The position numbers were made by a program, and so were the translations under genes. DNA of 64,000 bases from Terriglobia bacterium (GTDB lineage Bacteria; Acidobacteriota; Terriglobia; JAJPHL01): NCBI GenBank assembly GCA_021325275.1, contig JAJPHL010000051.1, positions 1 through 64,000 on the forward strand. Reading direction: 5' to 3'. A model generated the notes under the pieces. That model saw only the letters and a program-made list of their open reading frames with translations, ran no database searches and was not told the origin of the DNA. How positions within the stretch are numbered: the first letter of the stretch is position 1; each line of letters starts with the position of its first letter. Positions 35,354 through 44,159 of this stretch are shown in pieces.

Positions 35354-35490
35354 TGAATCATCAAGAGTGGCTGAGGGAACAGGCCCGACGAAGCCACGGC
35401 AACCGCCTCTCGCTGGAATCGTAACGCGATCCTTGAGAGGGTCCAGGTGCCAATTCCTGCCCCGGGTTTTCCGCCGGGGAAAGATGACGG
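35354..35490 (+). promoter_or_regulatory. SAM-I (S-box) riboswitch
   Basis: The sequence carries the SAM-I core: ATCAAGAGTGGCTGAGGGAA at the 5' side, GGCCCGACGAAGCCACGGCAACC in the middle, AGGTGCCAATTCCTGCC and the closing GATGAC (35484-35489), which can pair with the 5' GTCATC-like strand to form P1. The P3/P4 region contains an extended stem with the CCCCGG and CCGGGG arms. It controls the threonine-synthase-like gene 110 bp downstream. Which platform (terminator or translation) is used is not clear; a stem CGGAGT/ACTCCG (35558-35590 region) ends at the AGGAG ribosome-binding site and could sequester it. Confidence 0.85.
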
Positions 35491-35600
35491 GGCCGATGGC
35501 TTCCACGCCGTCGTCCTTCCTTCTACTTTCCCCAAATTCAAACGGAATCCGGTTTCTCGGAGTTAGCCGCCGGCATGCGGGATACTCCGTAGGAGAGATG

Positions 35601-36884
35601 ATGAGCAGTTATTTGCTTGGACTGGAATGTCGCGGCTGCGGCCGCGTCCTGCCCGCTGAACCCACTTCTATTTGCGACGAATGCTACTCGCCCGTCGAGC
35701 CCTGCTACGACTACAACGCGCTGCGCGGCAAGCTGACCCGCGAGGTTCTGCAAAGCCGTCCGCGCGACATGTGGCGCTACGCCGAGTTGTTGCCGTTGCG
35801 CCGCGAGCCGCAAGCGCGACTCCCGGTGGGCGGCACGCCGTTGATCGAAGCGCGCAACTTGGGACGCGCGCTGGGCCATCGCGCGTTGTACATCAAGAAC
35901 GATTCGATGAATTACCCCACGCTGTCGTTCAAGGATCGCGTGGTATCGGTGGCGCTGAACGCGGCGCTGGAGTTTGGATACGACACGCTGGCGTGCTCGT
36001 CCACCGGAAACCTGGCCAACGCCGTGGCCGCGCAAGCGGCGCGCGCGGGAATCAAAGCGGTGGTTTTCGTGCCGGCCGATATCGAAGACGCGAAACTGAC
36101 GGCGTCGCGCATTTACGGCGCCACCGTCATCCGCGTGCAAGGAAACTACGACGCTGTGAATCGCCTCTGCACGCAAATCTCGCAGGAGCGCCGCTGGGCG
36201 TTTGTGAACGTGAATTTCCGTCCGTTCTACGCCGAGGGATCGAAGACGGTCGGTTACGAAATCGCCGAACAGCTTGGATGGAAGCTGCCAGGCGCGGTGG
36301 TCGTACCGATGGCCGGCGGATCGCTCATCGGACGCATTCGCAAATCGTTTTCGGAGCTTGCTTACTTGGGAATCGTGGAGGACGACGCTCGTGAAGTGCG
36401 GATTTGCGGAGCGCAAGCTTCGGGATGCGCGCCCATCGCGCGCGCCGTGGAGACGGGACGCGCGGAGATCACGCCGGAGCGCCCGGACACGATCGCGCGT
36501 TCGCTGGTGATCGGCAATCCCGCGGACGGTCCGTTTGCCGCGCGCGCGATTCGCGAGTCGGGCGGCAGCGCCGCGCACGCCACGGACGAAGAATTGATCG
36601 AAGGCATTCGCTTGCTCGCATCCACCGAGGGGATTTTCGCGGAAACCGCCGGCGGCGTGACTGTCGCGGCGTTCCAAAAACTGATGGCGCAAGGCGCGAT
36701 CGATCCGGATCAACCGGCGGTGCTGGTGATCACAGGCAACGGACTGAAGACGGCCGAAGCGGTCGCCAACGTCGGCGGCGAAGTCTTCTTGATTCCTCCC
36801 AAACTGCGCGAGTTCGATCGCGTGTACGCGGGCAGCGCGAGTCAGGCCGCGCAAGAACAAGCGGCGCAGGAATTGGTGGCATAA
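35601..36884 (+). CDS. thrC: Threonine-synthase-like PLP enzyme under SAM-riboswitch control
   Basis: 427 residues from ATG 35601 (5 nt after AGGAG; ATG 35598 is too close). The N-terminus has a zinc-ribbon-like set of Cys (LECRGCGRVLPAEPTSICDECYSP), found in many threonine synthases. The PLP lysine is in TLSFKDR, and the phosphate loop is SSTGNLANAV, followed by AGGSLIGRI and the C-terminal VITGNGLKT. Known role: O-phosphohomoserine to threonine. The SAM riboswitch and the sulfur-carrier gene 8 bp downstream suggest, by inference, a methionine or homocysteine branch instead of simple threonine synthesis. Confidence 0.85.
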   Translation: MSSYLLGLECRGCGRVLPAEPTSICDECYSPVEPCYDYNALRGKLTREVLQSRPRDMWRYAELLPLRREPQARLPVGGTPLIEARNLGRALGHRALYIKNDSMNYPTLSFKDRVVSVALNAALEFGYDTLACSSTGNLANAVAAQAARAGIKAVVFVPADIEDAKLTASRIYGATVIRVQGNYDAVNRLCTQISQERRWAFVNVNFRPFYAEGSKTVGYEIAEQLGWKLPGAVVVPMAGGSLIGRIRKSFSELAYLGIVEDDAREVRICGAQASGCAPIARAVETGRAEITPERPDTIARSLVIGNPADGPFAARAIRESGGSAAHATDEELIEGIRLLASTEGIFAETAGGVTVAAFQKLMAQGAIDPDQPAVLVITGNGLKTAEAVANVGGEVFLIPPKLREFDRVYAGSASQAAQEQAAQELVA

Positions 36885-36892
36885 GGATCTAT

Positions 36893-37174
36893 ATGGCAAT
36901 CACCGTAAAACTGGGTTCTCCATTTCGCCGTCACACAGGCGGCGCGGACAAAATCACTTCGGCGGCGCCGGATTTGCCGGCGCTGTTCGGCGACCTCGAG
37001 TCGCGTTTCCCGGGACTCACAAAACATCTCGTTGGCGACAATGGCGAGCCGCGCCCGTTCCTCAACATCTACGTAAACGAAGAGGACATTCGCTTCCTCG
37101 GCGGAAAGAACTACAAATTCGCCGACGACGATGAAGTGTTGCTGATCCCCGCCGTCGCCGGCGGATCGAACTAA
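36893..37174 (+). CDS. MoaD/ThiS-family ubiquitin-like sulfur-carrier protein ending Gly-Gly-Ser-Asn
   Basis: 93 residues from ATG 36893 (SD AAGGA). The beta-grasp pattern is seen: an N-terminal strand, PALFGDLESRFPG helix, FLNIYVNEEDIRFLGG and DDEVLLIPAVAGG. Active carriers end in a free Gly-Gly that is adenylated and thiocarboxylated; here Ser-Asn follows, as in carriers such as Wolinella HcyS that are trimmed by a JAMM peptidase before use. No ThiF/MoeB or JAMM gene is in the window. Its place right after the SAM-controlled thrC-like gene suggests a role in homocysteine or cysteine formation. Confidence 0.75.
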   Translation: MAITVKLGSPFRRHTGGADKITSAAPDLPALFGDLESRFPGLTKHLVGDNGEPRPFLNIYVNEEDIRFLGGKNYKFADDDEVLLIPAVAGGSN

Positions 37175-37220: not shown

Positions 37221-37628
37221 TTATGCAGCGCCGGTGCCGGAAGGACCCGCCGGCGCTCGGGCGACACTCAGCCATAAATCGAGTTGTCGGCGAAGCACCT
37301 TGAAATCGATGGGCTTTGACACGACACTGTTGCATCCTTGGCGCAGGATTTCGTCCTGCTCGTGACGCATCGCGTGCGCCGTCACGGCGATCACCGGAAG
37401 GCGGCGCAATTCCGGCGTCGCGCGAATCCAGCGAGCTAGGTCTAAGCCGTCCTCGGCGCCCAGGCGAACGTCGAGCAACACCAGTTCCGGCACCGATCGC
37501 AGCAGCATTTCCTGAGCGGACTCCACCGTGCGCGCGACGTCCACGTCGATCTCCTCGGACTCCAGCCAGTCGCGCAGCATTTGCAGGTTCATGGCGTTGT
37601 CTTCGACGAGGAGCAAGCGATGTTTCAT
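37221..37628 (-). CDS. Single-domain response regulator
   Basis: 135 residues from ATG 37628 (MKHRLLLVEDN). A lone REC domain: acidic pair LVEDN, phosphorylation site LVLLDVRLG, Thr in VIAVTAHAM and Lys in VSKPID. There is no output domain, so it probably relays phosphate or acts by protein contact. It is the last gene of the kinase cluster and is preceded by two tiny MRRA frames from a 16-bp tandem duplication, suggesting termination-reinitiation between it and the kinase. Confidence 0.9.
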   Translation of the reverse strand: MKHRLLLVEDNAMNLQMLRDWLESEEIDVDVARTVESAQEMLLRSVPELVLLDVRLGAEDGLDLARWIRATPELRRLPVIAVTAHAMRHEQDEILRQGCNSVVSKPIDFKVLRRQLDLWLSVARAPAGPSGTGAA

Positions 37629-37657
37629 GTCAAGCACGCCTCATGTCAAGCACGCCT
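37626..37657 (-). repeat. 16-bp tandem duplication creating stop-start mini-frames
   Basis: CATGTCAAGCACGCCT occurs twice (37626-37641, 37642-37657). Read on the minus strand it gives ATG AGG CGT GCT TGA twice, spaced so that each TGA is followed by C-ATG. The upstream kinase's TGA overlaps the first ATG, and the third ATG starts the REC gene. Confidence 0.75.
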
Positions 37658-39399
37658 CATGCGGTTCCCTCTTTGGCGGCGACCGGCTCTCCGGCCGGCG
37701 AAAGGATCCGTTCCAGTTCCTGCAGCAACGTGTGACCCCATACGTCGCTCTTCAGATGCACGCCGCTCGATTGCCGCAACAGCACCTTGCGCTCGGTCGC
37801 GGTCAAATCCTTGGCCGTGAGCACTAGGATCCGCAAGTTGCTGGTGCGCGGATCGGCGCGCCACTGCGCCAGCAAGTCGAACCCGCCGACGCCGGGCAAC
37901 ATCAAGTCCAGGATTACCACAGAGGGCAGCGACGCCGCTACCGACTTCTGCGCTTCTTCACCGGAAGCGGCGAGCGCGACGCGACAACCGATACCCTCAA
38001 GGAGCTGTCGCACCGTTTCGCGCACCGCCGAATCGTCGTCCACTACCAAGACTTCCGGCGGCGTTTGCTGGCGCCCGCCCAAACAACGTTCGATCGCGCG
38101 CGCCAGCGCCTGGCGATCGACGGGCTTCACTAAGTGATCGTCGGCGCCGAGCAGCGCGCCGATGCTTTTTCGCTCGATGGCCGACACCAGGATCGTAGGA
38201 ATCGCCGCGGTGCGCGGATCGTCCTTCAAGCGGCCCAAGACTTGCCATCCGGTAAGCGGACGCATCAAAACGTCGAGCGTGATGGCCGCCGGTTGCAGGC
38301 GCGCGGCCGTCTCGACCACGCTTTCCGGCTCATCGGTCCAATGAACGTGATAGCCCTCGGCTTGCAGGTGCTCGCCGATCTGCTCGGCGGCGGCAGGATC
38401 GTCTTCCACCACGAGAATCAGGCGTCCGCCTCCAAAGGCTCGCGACGATTTCAGCGGCGCGCGGCCGGCCGGCAGCGTGAAGAAGAATCGCGAGCCTTGC
38501 CCGGCGACCTCCAGCCGCGCTGCGGCGTTCGATTCACCGGAGCTAGGGTCGTCCAGGCCGCATTGCCCGCCTTGCGCTTCCACCAACTTCCGCGCGATCG
38601 CCAGACCCAAACCTGTACCGTCGCCGGTGCGCGCGTCTTTTCCTCGAAAGAACGCCTCAAAAACGTGGGCGCGATCTTTCTCCGGAATTCCCGTACCATC
38701 GCCGGCGACTTCCACGCGCACCGCGCCGTCCGGCGTGCTGATGGCCGACACTGTGACCGCGCCGTTCTCCGGCGTGTACTTGATGGCGTTGGCGATCAAG
38801 GTGGTCAGCACCTGCTGCAGGCGTGCGGCGTCGGCGCGCACCGTAAGACCCAGCGGACACGCCGCGGCCAGCTGCACATTCTTCTTCTCGCTGAGCGGAC
38901 GGACGGTTTCAATCGCTTCAAGAACCGCGGAATCGACCGACAAGTCTTCCGGCGTCAAGTCCAACTGCCCCGCTTCGATTTTCGAGAGATCGAGAATGTC
39001 GTTGATCAAGCGCAACAACTGCTGGCCCGCGGAATGTACGTTGCGGACATAACTCGATTGCTTATCGTTCATTTCGCCGTAGCGATTTTGGATCAGCAAT
39101 TCGGAAAATCCGATCACCGCATTGAGCGGCGTGCGCAATTCGTGGCTCATGTCGGATAGAAAGCGGTTCTTCAGGCGGTCGAGTTCGTCGGTGTGGCGGG
39201 CGGGACCCGCATCGACGCCGCGCAAATTCCTCGCTACGTCGAGAATGTTGCGTCCCACGAAATCTTCGCGGCGCAGGCCCGTCGACTTCAGGTACGCGTC
39301 GCTGACGGTGGTGACCGTTAGGTCGGACCGCAAGGTGATCGCCGCCGATCCCGCGTCAAAAAGTTTTCGAGAATCCCGCCCATCGCCCGCTTGACTCAT
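37657..39399 (-). CDS. Hybrid sensor histidine kinase with two C-terminal REC domains
   Basis: 580 residues, soluble. Residues 1-70: PAS-like sensor (AITLRSDLTVTTVSDAYLKSTGL). HisKA with His86 in DMSHELRTPLNAVIGFSELL. The HATPase follows with ATLIANAIKYTP, GDGTGIP and GTGLGLAIARKL (N, G1, G2 boxes). REC1 runs from about 330 (LILVVEDD, phosphoacceptor in TLDVLM) and REC2 from about 460 (VLVVDDD, VILDLML). It is the most compact of three related kinases in a row. The signal is unknown. It overlaps the next start through the repeat at 37626. Confidence 0.9.
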   Translation of the reverse strand: MSQAGDGRDSRKLFDAGSAAITLRSDLTVTTVSDAYLKSTGLRREDFVGRNILDVARNLRGVDAGPARHTDELDRLKNRFLSDMSHELRTPLNAVIGFSELLIQNRYGEMNDKQSSYVRNVHSAGQQLLRLINDILDLSKIEAGQLDLTPEDLSVDSAVLEAIETVRPLSEKKNVQLAAACPLGLTVRADAARLQQVLTTLIANAIKYTPENGAVTVSAISTPDGAVRVEVAGDGTGIPEKDRAHVFEAFFRGKDARTGDGTGLGLAIARKLVEAQGGQCGLDDPSSGESNAAARLEVAGQGSRFFFTLPAGRAPLKSSRAFGGGRLILVVEDDPAAAEQIGEHLQAEGYHVHWTDEPESVVETAARLQPAAITLDVLMRPLTGWQVLGRLKDDPRTAAIPTILVSAIERKSIGALLGADDHLVKPVDRQALARAIERCLGGRQQTPPEVLVVDDDSAVRETVRQLLEGIGCRVALAASGEEAQKSVAASLPSVVILDLMLPGVGGFDLLAQWRADPRTSNLRILVLTAKDLTATERKVLLRQSSGVHLKSDVWGHTLLQELERILSPAGEPVAAKEGTA

Positions 39400-39412
39400 A
39401 CGCGCACCCCGC

Positions 39413-41439
39413 CTAGCCGACCGCGACTTGCCGCCTGTCCCGCGCCACCAACTGCTGCAACACTTCCAGCAACGGTTGATTCCAGGTTCGAGATTTGCTG
39501 AATACGCCGTCGGCCAAACGCGTCAGGACCTCGCGTTCGGCGTCGGCCAAATCCTTGCCGCTGAGCACCAGCACCGGCAGATTCGCGGTGTGCGGATCGG
39601 CGCGCCATCTTTCGAGCAATTCAAAGCCGTCGACGCCGGGCATCAGCAAATCGAGAATCACCACCGACGGCAGCGACGCCGCCACCGCCGCCTGCGCTTC
39701 CAATCCCGTGGTGACCGCGGCCACTTGATAGTTCGAATCCTCAAGAACGCGCGGATCGTTTCGCGCAACGCCGGATCGTCGTCGACCACCAGCACTTTCA
39801 GCGGGCCATTTTGCGGACGCGCCGTCCGGCAACGCTCCAGGGCTTGGAGCAACGTGTCGCGCTCCACGGGCTTGACCAGATAATCGCTGGCCCCCAGCAG
39901 CGCGCCGACTTCGCGCTCGTGCATCACCGACACCATGATCACGGGGATCTTCAGCGTGAAGCGATCCTTCTTCAGCAGGCCGAGCACCTCCCAACCGCTG
40001 ATCGGCTTCATCAACAAATCAAGCGTGATGGCGGTGGGCTGAAGTTGCGCAGCCATGCGCACGGCGCGCGACGGATCGTCGCACCAGTAAACGTGATATC
40101 CCTCGGGCGCCAGTTGCGACTCGATCAGTTGCGCGGACGCTTGGTCGTCTTCCACCACCAGCACCGTGCCGCGATAATTTGGATCGCTCGGCATGCGCAA
40201 GATCTGACTCTCACCCTTGGCGGCCGGCAACGAGAAAAAGAAGCGGCTCCCGTGCCCTTCTTCGCTCTCCAAGCCGAACTTTCCGCCTTGCGCTTCCACC
40301 AAACTTTTCGCCAGCGCCAACCCTAAGCCCGATCCCGAGTGGCCGCCCGATGGCCCGCGATAGAACGGCGCGAGCACCGCTTCCTGGCGGTCGCGCGCAA
40401 TGCCTGGACCGTTGTCGACCACTTCGACGCGGATCGTGCTGCCCGACTCCGCCGCGACTTCTGACGCGACCACGGCGATTTGCCCGCCTTCCGGCGTGAA
40501 TTTCACGGCGTTGTCGACCAGGTTCGCCAGAACCTGCTGCAAGCGCTGCGCATCGGCACGCACCCGCAAGCGTCCCGGCACGGCGGAGGTCAGCGTAATA
40601 TTCTTTTTCTCGGCTTGCGGCTTCAGCGACGACACCACGTCGCCGGCGATCAAATCGAGCGGCAGCGCTTCGGGTGAAAACTCCAAGCGCCCCGCTTCGA
40701 TCTTCGAGAGATCGACGAGGTCGTTGATCAGTTTCAACAAACTCCGTCCCGCCGTATGGATGTTGCGCACGTATTCGGATTGCTTCGCGGAGAGCGAGCC
40801 GTGGCGATTTTGCGTCAATAATTCAGAAAATCCAATCACCGCGTTCAACGGCGTGCGTAATTCATGGCTGACGCCGGAGAGGAATTGATCCTTAAATCGG
40901 TTGGCTTGTTCGGCGACTTCCTTCAGCAAGCGCGTCAAACGTTCGGCGTCGCGGGCGCGCTTGTCTTTCACGGCGCGCTCCACGGCAAACGGCAAGCGGC
41001 CAATGCGCTCCTTCGCCACGTAATCGGTGACGCCCCTCTTGATGCATTCGACGGCCAGGTCCTCGCCGAGCGATCGCGCCAGCACGATGAACGGCATGTC
41101 CCGATACTCGCGGCGTGCGATATCAAACGCGTCGAGCGCGGTCCAGCCGGGCAGACTGTAATCGGAGAGCACCAGATCGTAGGGATGCGCGCGCAGGGCG
41201 CGCACGAATTCCCCTGGGGAACAGGCCAGATCGTGTTGCAGCCGGTATCCGGCGCGCTGGAGTTGGCGGCGGACGCGGCGAACGTCGTCCTGCACGGTTT
41301 CCAAATGCAGGACGCGCAGAAAAGCTTTCTCGCGGGTAACGAAATCGTCGTCGCCCGCGCGCTTCATGGAGCGCGCAGGCATTTCCACGGCCGGATGTTC
41401 CGGCGACTTTTCGTCCACTGGCTTGTTCTGTTCTTCCAT
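39413..41439 (-). pseudogene. Hybrid histidine kinase (REC-HK-REC-REC) with a frameshift in the last REC
   Basis: From ATG 41439 the protein reads an N-terminal REC (DLVLSDYSLPG), HisKA (GVSHELRTPLNAVIGFSELL), HATPase (LVDNAVKFTPEGG, GSGLGLALAKS) and REC (VLVVEDDQ, ITLDLLM). A second C-terminal REC starts with VLVVDDD, then changes frame near 39740: one frame ends KWPRSP..., while the other continues VLEDSNYQVAAV, VVILDLLMPGVDGF to a stop at 39413. A one-base deletion explains it. It may be a real pseudogene, or an assembly error, or an expression-limiting shift; the kinase core is intact. Confidence 0.75.
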
Positions 41440-41606
41440 GTCGAGCCCCTACGTTGCCAGTTATCGCGCCCTTTGAATTTACGCCCGGCAGCCTCCCATG
41501 GCGTAGAAAAAATGAACAATTATTCAGGTACGTTTAGGCTAACCCTAAAGCGTGTTACCTCCATTACTCGACATTTATTCACTAAAATCATCCCAGCGCC
41601 CGCGGC

Positions 41607-44159
41607 CTAACCAGACGCCGCCCGCCCCGCCGTCACACAACGCTCCAAAACTTCCAGTAATGCCAGTCTCCCAAAATCGCCTTTGGAAAAAACTCCATCG
41701 GCTTGGCGGCGCAGCAACTCCGTTTCGGCGGAACTCAAATCCTTGTTTGTCATCACCAGCACCGGCAAACTCGCCGTCTCGGGCGACGATCGCCACTTCG
41801 CCAACAACTCGAATCCGTCCATGCGCGGCATCAGCAAATCGAGAATCACCGCCGCGGGCCGCGACCGGGCGACGGCGGCGAGCGCTTCCACGCCGTCCGG
41901 CGCCGAGTCTACGGCAAAGCCCGACTCCCGCAGCGACTCGCGCACCGTTTCGACCACCGAAGGGTCGTCGTCCACCACGAGGAGCCGCGTGGGGCCGTTG
42001 TTGCGAACGCGCGCCACGCAACGGTCCAGCGATTTCAGCAGCGCCGCGCGGTCCACCGGCTTCAGCAGATAATCGTCGGCGCCGAGCAGCGCGCCCACTT
42101 CGCGTTGATCGAGCACCGAAATCAGGATCACCGGAATGTCCGACGTGCGCGAGTCCCGCTTCAACTGGCCGAGCACTTCCCATCCCGTGAACGGCTTCAT
42201 CATGATGTCCAAGGTGATGGCCGTGGGCCGCAGAGTCGCGGCCAGTTCCACAACTTTCGCGGAATCCTCGCACCAGTGCGCGCGATAGCCGGCCTCGGCG
42301 AGCTGAGCGTCGATCAAGATGGCGGCGTTCGCGTCATCCTCGGCGATTAACACGATGCCGCGCGTAGCGGACCCGCCGGACACGCTCGTTTCCTGCGCGG
42401 GACGCGGTGCGCGTGATCCGGAGATCAACGGCAGGGTGAAGAAAAACGTGCTGCCCTTGCCGACTTCGCTCTGTAACCCGAATTCGCCGTGATGGCCCTC
42501 GACGAGCCGCTTGGCGATCGCCAGTCCCAGGCCCGCGCCTTCGCGACGCCGCGATTGCCGCGCGCGATAAAACGACTCGAAAATCAATTTCTGCTCAGCG
42601 GGCGGAATTCCCGGCCCCGTGTCGGCGACTTCGGTTCGCGCAAACCCGCCTTCTTCCCGCAACGTCACGGTCACGCCTCCGCCCTCGGGCGTAAACTTGA
42701 TCGCGTTGCCGACTAAATTCGTGATGATCTGCTGCACGCGCACCGGGTCGGCGCGCACCATCACGGCCGCGGGACAAACGCACGCCAGCGAAATGTTTTT
42801 TTGATCCGCCAGCGACTTGAGCGACGCCAGAACATCGCCCGCCAGCGATCCCAGCGGCACGTCTTCCGGCGAGAGTTCCAAACGTCCCGCTTCGATCTTC
42901 GAGAGATCGAGAATGTCGTTGATCAATCGCAACAAGTGCTGCCCGGCGGTGTGAATGTTCGAGACGTAGCTCGACTGCCGGTCGTTCAACGGACCGTAGC
43001 GGTTTTGCACCAGCAATTCGGAAAATCCGATGACCGCGTTGAGCGGTGTGCGCAGCTCATGGCTCATCGTGGAAAGAAATTCGTCCTTGAAATGGCTGGC
43101 TTGCTCGGCGGCGTCGCGGGCCTGCTCCAGAGCGGCTTCCGCGTCCTTCTGCATGGTGATGTCGGTGGCCACGCAACAGACCCCTCCCACCCGGCCGGAA
43201 GCGTCGATCAGCGGATATTTCGCCGCGAGAAACGTGTGCGTCGCGCCATTCAGTTGAATGGGGATTTCCACGGTCAAGGGCCGGCGCGTCTCACAAACTT
43301 CACGATCCGTCTCGCGCGACACGTTCAGCGATTCGGGTGTAAAGAGATCGGTGAGATTTTTCCCGAGCATTTCCTCAGGCCGGCGTCCATAGAGCGCGGC
43401 CTGATAGCGATTCACCATCAAGAAACGCCCTTCCAGATCGCGCACGTCGACGGCCGCCTGACAGCCATCCATCACTTTGTCGAGCAAGCCGCGTGTCTCA
43501 CGTTCTTTTGTCTCCGACGCTTCGCGCTCGCGGCTCTCGCGGCGAATCATCAGGAAGCACCAGCCGACCACGCCGGCGGCCACCAAGCTGCCCAGCAGGA
43601 TGCTCAACATCGTGAGCCCCCAACTGCGCACGGCGAACGCCGCGCGTTCCGCCTGGGTCTGGCGCAGCCGCGACGAAACGGTTTGCAGCGACATCATGAT
43701 GGGCGCGCCAGATTCCGCTTCATTGCCGGCCGCCACGATTTGTTTCGATGGAACGCTTTTTCCCGCGGCGGCGAGCGCGACCGTCGCGTCGGTGGAGGCG
43801 ATCCGCGCATTGACAAGATCGCCGATCCCCGGCATCAGTGCCTGCGTGGGAATGTCGCCTTCGCGCATGATCGTGCCGAGCGCCCCCAGACTCACGCGCA
43901 CTTCCGTCTTCACCGCTTCGTAGTGCTGCAGCCGTTCCGCCCGGGGATCCAGGCACTCGGCGCGCGCGCTCGAACCCATTTCCAGAAGCAGCTTTGCCAA
44001 GCGATTGTTTTCGTTCATCGCCTGCAAGATCAGTTGCGTGCGAATCGTGTTGCGCGCAATGCTCTGGATGTTGACGTACGACATCACCGTGACGCCGGCC
44101 AGCGCGGCCAGCGCCAAGAAAAAACTCAATGCGATCTTCCGGTAGAAACCGACGGCCAT
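41607..44159 (-). CDS. Membrane hybrid sensor kinase with PAS and two REC domains
   Basis: 850 residues. TM1 (about 9-27) and TM2 (about 182-206) bracket a helical extracytoplasmic sensor. A PAS domain follows (about 235-350; LEGRFLMVNRYQAALYGRRPEEMLG). HisKA (TMSHELRTPLNAVIGFSELL), HATPase (LVGNAIKFTPEGGG, GAGLGLAIAKR) and REC domains (VLIAEDDAN with ITLDIMM; LLVVDDDPS with VILDLLM) complete it. The kinase region is closely related to its two downstream neighbours, so duplication is likely. Its ATG overlaps the HD-GYP stop (TAATG at 44157-44161), so it is translationally coupled. Confidence 0.9.
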   Translation of the reverse strand: MAVGFYRKIALSFFLALAALAGVTVMSYVNIQSIARNTIRTQLILQAMNENNRLAKLLLEMGSSARAECLDPRAERLQHYEAVKTEVRVSLGALGTIMREGDIPTQALMPGIGDLVNARIASTDATVALAAAGKSVPSKQIVAAGNEAESGAPIMMSLQTVSSRLRQTQAERAAFAVRSWGLTMLSILLGSLVAAGVVGWCFLMIRRESREREASETKERETRGLLDKVMDGCQAAVDVRDLEGRFLMVNRYQAALYGRRPEEMLGKNLTDLFTPESLNVSRETDREVCETRRPLTVEIPIQLNGATHTFLAAKYPLIDASGRVGGVCCVATDITMQKDAEAALEQARDAAEQASHFKDEFLSTMSHELRTPLNAVIGFSELLVQNRYGPLNDRQSSYVSNIHTAGQHLLRLINDILDLSKIEAGRLELSPEDVPLGSLAGDVLASLKSLADQKNISLACVCPAAVMVRADPVRVQQIITNLVGNAIKFTPEGGGVTVTLREEGGFARTEVADTGPGIPPAEQKLIFESFYRARQSRRREGAGLGLAIAKRLVEGHHGEFGLQSEVGKGSTFFFTLPLISGSRAPRPAQETSVSGGSATRGIVLIAEDDANAAILIDAQLAEAGYRAHWCEDSAKVVELAATLRPTAITLDIMMKPFTGWEVLGQLKRDSRTSDIPVILISVLDQREVGALLGADDYLLKPVDRAALLKSLDRCVARVRNNGPTRLLVVDDDPSVVETVRESLRESGFAVDSAPDGVEALAAVARSRPAAVILDLLMPRMDGFELLAKWRSSPETASLPVLVMTNKDLSSAETELLRRQADGVFSKGDFGRLALLEVLERCVTAGRAASG

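What the first reader, a model, noticed from the sequence alone, without database searches (positions are those of the whole stretch)
35354..37174. SAM riboswitch controls a thrC-like gene followed by a sulfur carrier ending GG-Ser-Asn
Seen: a SAM-I riboswitch, then a threonine-synthase-like PLP enzyme, then a MoaD/ThiS-like protein with two residues after its Gly-Gly. Known: in Wolinella, HcyS-type carriers with extra C-terminal residues are trimmed by a JAMM peptidase and feed sulfur into homocysteine. Inference: this operon makes homocysteine or methionine from O-phosphohomoserine and a protein thiocarboxylate instead of simple threonine.
Basis: partly seen in the sequence, partly recalled or inferred. 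Interest (0 to 1): 0.68.

Follow-up and report, generated by a model that had tools for sequence, protein, structure and literature searches.

The report
SAM-controlled MetM–MetO homocysteine synthesis operon
A two-gene operon that automatic annotation would call "threonine synthase plus sulfur carrier" most likely makes homocysteine, the precursor of methionine, using the MetM/MetO route described in Streptomyces in 2024, and is switched by a methionine-sensing RNA.

Summary
A SAM-I riboswitch (35355-35490, 78 bits) precedes a threonine-synthase-like PLP enzyme (35601-36884), then a ThiS/MoaD-like carrier (36893-37174) ending Gly-Gly-Ser-Asn. It is the only SAM riboswitch found in the 6.86-Mb genome. 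It is MetM/MetO of Streptomyces (Hasebe 2024, known here only through a citing paper). The enzyme falls in one fully supported clade of 125 proteins, separate from true threonine synthases, with its own invariant residues; the genome has other ThrC-type genes. Homoserine kinase and methionine-synthase-type genes are present; MetX and MetA are absent. In the phylum, MetM and MetX/MetA rarely co-occur. In four related genomes one SAM-riboswitch operon reads E1, cysteine desulfurase, MetM, MetO: a thiocarboxylate relay in order. The Ser-Asn tail needs trimming. The genome has one CysO-type JAMM peptidase, beside cysM and a CysO-MoeB-rhodanese fusion; tailed MetO occurs only in genomes with such a JAMM (16/16), against 4/9 with untailed MetO. 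Activity is inferred, not shown; a cyanobacterial homologue was reported to make threonine in vitro. I file it as a new member of a known kind.

The parts
35355..35490 (+). SAM-I (S-box) riboswitch aptamer
   Evidence: RF00162, 78 bits, E 1.2e-16, model 1-108 of 108; only one reported in the genome
35476..35533 (+). strong alternative hairpin that would use the 3' strand of the aptamer; possible expression platform, not followed by a run of T
   Evidence: RNA fold of 35476-35550: -31.6 kcal/mol, z -4.23; no terminator-like site on the + strand here
35601..36884 (+). metM: threonine-synthase-like PLP enzyme, proposed O-phosphohomoserine-dependent homocysteine synthase (427 aa; an in-frame ATG also at 35598)
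   Evidence: PF00291, TIGR00260; MetM clade support 100; signature residues; model pLDDT 89, best VIA Z 42 to threonine synthase
35931..35933 (+). codon of the predicted PLP lysine K111 in PTLSFKDR
   Evidence: alignment with threonine synthases and invariant in MetM
36893..37174 (+). metO: ThiS/MoaD/CysO-like sulfur carrier, 93 aa
   Evidence: PF02597; nearest PDB CysO 3dwg_C; beta-grasp model pLDDT 92 with disordered tail
37160..37165 (+). Gly90-Gly91, proposed thiocarboxylate site
   Evidence: sequence; invariant in 33 aligned carriers
37166..37171 (+). Ser-Asn tail to be removed before activation
   Evidence: sequence; tail/JAMM co-occurrence

Best explanation
The operon is a MetM-MetO homocysteine synthesis unit. 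Homoserine kinase makes O-phosphohomoserine. A JAMM peptidase encoded in the separate cysM locus trims MetO after Gly-Gly. An E1 (the MoeB-rhodanese protein of that locus or another ThiF) adenylates MetO and sulfurates it to a thiocarboxylate. MetM eliminates phosphate from O-phosphohomoserine on PLP and adds sulfur from MetO-COSH at the gamma carbon, giving homocysteine, freed from the carrier by hydrolysis or by the JAMM. A methionine-synthase-type methyltransferase then makes methionine. SAM binding to the leader lowers expression. Shown here by sequence: parts, order, partners in the genome, clade membership, absence of MetX/MetA, conservation. Inferred: substrates, reaction, trimming by that JAMM, direction of the switch.
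For: SAM-I riboswitch as leader, also found with 28 of the 45 MetM genomes of the phylum and many named loci. MetM is one clade with support 100, apart from the ThrC rows, with residues invariant in MetM and different in ThrC: L138 (ThrC Thr/Ala), R207 (Asn/Glu), Y210 (Arg), A238 (Gly), D309-G310. A carrier follows metM in 72 of 81 loci from many phyla. Own genome: thrB, methionine-synthase-type genes, no MetA, and the MetX-like hits are other hydrolases. MetM overlaps MetX or MetA in 4 of 45 genomes (Fisher p 3e-4). Operon SAM riboswitch-E1-cysteine desulfurase-MetM-MetO in L073, L075, L079, L080. MetM also beside sulfate-assimilation genes. Published precedent MetM/MetO with riboswitch.
Against: No biochemical test. 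The Microcystis homologue made threonine from O-phosphohomoserine in vitro and its authors doubted a MetM role in vivo (PMC12172450). About 19 MetM genes in the phylum have no MetO next door. 99 of 199 genomes lack MetM, MetX and MetA alike, so lack of MetX alone is weak. The Fisher test is not corrected for phylogeny. Three Cys/Met-metabolism PLP enzymes could in principle use O-phosphohomoserine.
Confidence: 0.85

Rival explanations
1. It is an ordinary threonine synthase (or threonine synthase/deaminase) that happens to be under SAM control, and the carrier serves something else.
For: TIGR00260 thrC hit above cut-off; fold is that of threonine synthase; the cyanobacterial homologue has threonine synthase activity in vitro.
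Against: Separate clade and signature; L008 matches the threonine synthase family PRK08197 with 597 bits and L013 and L007 are further ThrC-type genes; in about ten named loci MetM-MetO sits beside another ThrC-type gene; riboswitch and carrier adjacency; the genome has its own ThiS, MoaD and CysO carriers.
Confidence: 0.08
2. MetM makes homocysteine but takes free sulfide; MetO is an accessory or is needed only at low sulfide.
For: Some MetM genes with SAM riboswitches have no MetO next to them.
Against: MetO adjacency across phyla; operons with E1 and cysteine desulfurase; Gly-Gly invariant.
Confidence: 0.2
3. Homocysteine is made mainly by one of the MetB/MetC/MetY-family enzymes (L015-L017) using O-phosphohomoserine as in plants, and the MetM operon is a minor or stress route.
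For: Three such genes present.
Against: None reaches the cut-off of a homoserine-ester-dependent family; none has a SAM riboswitch.
Confidence: 0.1

Closest known systems
MetM/MetO of Streptomyces albulus (Hasebe et al. 2024, doi 10.1128/aem.01247-24; read only through PMC12172450)
   Same: ThrC-like homocysteine synthase next to a sulfur-carrier gene, SAM riboswitch upstream of metM, O-phosphohomoserine as substrate
   Different: Window MetO carries a two-residue tail after Gly-Gly; the one actinobacterial locus seen here (Nonomuraea, L116) has SAM riboswitch, MetM and a MetO ending at Gly-Gly. The S. albulus MetO tail was not checked.
HcyS/HcyD/HcyF with MetY of Wolinella succinogenes (from my own knowledge; paper not held)
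   Same: carrier with C-terminal extension trimmed by a JAMM protease, E1 activation, thiocarboxylate used for homocysteine
   Different: PLP enzyme is MetY (O-acetylhomoserine), another fold; here a ThrC-like enzyme and presumably O-phosphohomoserine
CysO/CysM/Mec/MoeZR of Mycobacterium (PMC3227635)
   Same: same kind of carrier (3dwg_C is the nearest solved relative), E1-rhodanese and JAMM; a full set is present at C55
   Different: makes cysteine, not homocysteine; separate locus in this genome
Row 4c operons of Iyer et al. 2006 (PMC1779556): ThiS/MoaD, E1-rhodanese, JAB, cysteine synthase, including Solibacter
   Same: the C55 locus of this genome is of this type
   Different: that paper does not mention threonine synthase neighbours

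Membership tests
MetM/MetO homocysteine synthesis | ThrC-like PLP enzyme of the MetM clade | tested here: met
   Clade of 125 with support 100 including cyanobacterial and Nonomuraea members. The S. albulus sequence itself was not available.
MetM/MetO homocysteine synthesis | adjacent sulfur carrier with Gly-Gly | tested here: met
MetM/MetO homocysteine synthesis | SAM riboswitch upstream (as in S. albulus) | tested here: met
MetM/MetO homocysteine synthesis | canonical homoserine acyltransferase missing | tested here: met
   MetA none; MetX-like hits are PRK07581 and PRK06489
MetM/MetO homocysteine synthesis | homocysteine formed from O-phosphohomoserine | not testable with these tools
   needs enzyme assay
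HcyS-type tailed carrier | residues after Gly-Gly and a JAMM peptidase in the genome | tested here: met
   Ser-Asn tail; JAMM at C55
HcyS-type tailed carrier | partner enzyme MetY | tested here: not met
   partner is ThrC-like; OAH_OAS family below cut-off for L015-L017
SAM-I riboswitch RF00162 | score over gathering threshold, full aptamer | tested here: met
Threonine synthase ThrC (TIGR00260) | score over family cut-off | tested here: met
   275.9 against 167.1
Threonine synthase ThrC (TIGR00260) | groups with the ThrC rows in a tree and shares their conserved residues | tested here: not met

The most novel reading that the evidence does not exclude
A hybrid of two known routes: a MetM-type homocysteine synthase fed by a carrier made as an inactive tailed precursor, whose activation depends on a JAMM peptidase (and perhaps E1) shared with the cysteine pathway, so that cysteine-locus proteins gate methionine synthesis. 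Tails of 1 to 28 residues, even whole NIL domains, suggest JAMM cleavage after Gly-Gly regardless of what follows.
Probability: 0.55. Interest if true: 0.5.

Novelty: new member of a known kind. Interest (0 to 1): 0.42.

Why it matters
MetM genes can pass the standard threonine synthase cut-off, so methionine pathways in many Acidobacteriota and other phyla are likely mis-annotated. The clade, its signature residues and the tail/JAMM pattern give a way to recognise them, and the two-locus arrangement suggests that cysteine and methionine synthesis share a carrier-processing peptidase.

Tried and rejected
Hasebe 2024 is not held. The plasmid collection gave only one MetM, in Nonomuraea. MetX-like hits at C52 and C31 were rejected as other alpha/beta hydrolases. 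A MoaD/ThiS role for MetO in molybdopterin or thiamine was rejected because dedicated genes exist. A clear intrinsic terminator was not found, so the expression platform is left open. No held paper was found on the roles of ThrC active-site residues, so the signature residues are reported without assigned roles.

Full report
What is there. A SAM-I aptamer lies at 35355-35490, and the ThrC-like ORF starts at ATG 35601 (or 35598). Eight bases after its stop, a 93-aa ThiS-family protein begins and ends ...PAVAGGSN. The downstream genes, hybrid kinases, lie on the other strand. The whole-genome search reported no other SAM riboswitch. Folding suggests a strong alternative hairpin just after the aptamer (z -4.23), but no terminator-like T-run, so how the switch acts is open.

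Which organism. The genome belongs to the same class as genomes whose MetM is nearly identical to that of Edaphobacter lichenicola, hence Acidobacteriota, class Terriglobia. It is a 6.86-Mb draft, 97.6% complete.

The enzyme is not a typical ThrC. NCBIfam puts it over the thrC cut-off, and its AlphaFold model aligns best to threonine synthases (Z 42 to 2c2b and 37 to 1uim). But across 199 genomes of the phylum, hits to it split cleanly. There are 44 with over 400 bits, plus one cut by a contig end, and nothing between these and 269 bits. In a tree of 139 rows all 125 MetM rows form one group with support 100 on a long branch. The genome's own ThrC-type proteins L008, L013 and L007 lie outside it; L007 is a long branch, so its exact place is unsure. 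Several positions are invariant in MetM and different in ThrC: L138, E162, N187, R207, Y210, A238, D309, G310. Some lie in the stretches that align with the ThrC active-site loops; I do not assign roles to single residues.

The carrier. Its nearest solved relatives are mycobacterial CysO and the carrier 4n6e_B. The model is a confident beta-grasp fold with a disordered C-terminus. The genome also has ThiS, a MoaD-MoaE fusion, a CysO-MoeB-rhodanese fusion and a SAMP1-like carrier, so MetO is not needed to fill those roles.

The pathway. Homoserine kinase is present over its cut-off, and a 1289-aa open frame with a methionine-synthase methyltransferase domain is present. MetA is absent. The two MetX-like hits are other alpha/beta hydrolases. 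Three MetB/MetC/MetY-family enzymes exist, none over a specific cut-off. In the phylum, 45 genomes have MetM, 44 have MetX at 249 bits or more, 15 have MetA; MetM overlaps MetX in 2 and MetA in 2 (odds ratio 0.18, p 3e-4, no phylogenetic correction). Ninety-nine genomes have none of the three, so this is support, not proof.

Context in relatives. In the Acidobacteriaceae-like family, metM-metO is always adjacent where both are seen. The SAM riboswitch leads in every such locus with a complete leader. One member, G023, has riboswitch and metM but no metO. In four genomes of another family the order is SAM riboswitch, E1, cysteine desulfurase (TIGR01977), MetM, MetO ending at Gly-Gly. That is the sulfur relay expected for a thiocarboxylate donor. 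Elsewhere in the phylum MetM stands beside sulfate-assimilation or aspartokinase genes (read from the translations), with no MetO next door. In named genomes of Nitrospirota, Cyanobacteriota, Omnitrophota, Planctomycetota and others, a carrier follows metM in 72 of 81 loci.

The tail and the peptidase. MetO tails vary: none in 21 of 72 named loci, 1 to 14 residues in most others, and an 80-residue NIL domain in four. A JAMM gene lies in the same locus in 16 of 51 tailed cases and 1 of 21 untailed (p 0.016). In the phylum survey all 16 genomes with tailed MetO have a strong CysO-type JAMM, against 4 of 9 with untailed MetO (p 0.002). Neither test is corrected for relatedness. In the window's genome the JAMM lies at C55 between cysM and the CysO-MoeB-rhodanese gene. 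I infer that it trims MetO in trans. The JAMM beside a YukD-like/E1/RING cluster at C26 is a less likely candidate.

Known precedent. PMC12172450 reports that Hasebe et al. 2024 found the homocysteine synthase MetM in Streptomyces, with homologues in cyanobacteria, a carrier gene metO, and a SAM riboswitch upstream of metM in S. albulus. The same paper found that the Microcystis homologue makes threonine, and slowly deaminates it, in vitro; it doubted a full MetM role there. This is the main evidence against a dedicated homocysteine synthase.

Verdict. The function is an inference from precedent plus context. It is a new member of a known kind, with a possibly undescribed combination of MetM and a JAMM-processed carrier.

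Noticed in passing
L003:6542-7981 (genome contig C55): CysO, MoeB and rhodanese are one ORF with an internal Gly-Gly (IAGGSPAAAAEPP), directly after a JAMM gene: a carrier fused to its own activating enzyme that would need cutting to work. Similar long frames occur in many genomes of the phylum.
   Followed up: partly
L129:5282-5797, L140:6642-7157, L142:1809-2324, L147:5272-5787: MetO-like carriers fused to a NIL domain after Gly-Gly (PF09383 confirmed for L129 and L142).
   Followed up: partly
L079:260-4311 and L073, L075, L080: SAM riboswitch, E1, cysteine desulfurase, MetM, MetO in one operon.
   Followed up: yes
L197-L217: About 19 MetM genes without MetO next door, many still under SAM riboswitches; sulfur donor unknown.
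   Followed up: partly
L004:4473-8563 (genome contig C26): Ubiquitin-like cluster: YukD-like protein, ThiF-type E1, JAB peptidase, FHA protein and a prokaryotic RING/TM2 protein.
   Followed up: partly
L115:3475-4879 (genome contig C30): SAMP1-like carrier ending exactly at Gly-Gly beside a repeat-rich protein of unknown role.
   Followed up: no
window 37221-44159 (-): Run of response regulator and hybrid sensor kinases with repeated receiver domains, apparently local duplicates.
   Followed up: no
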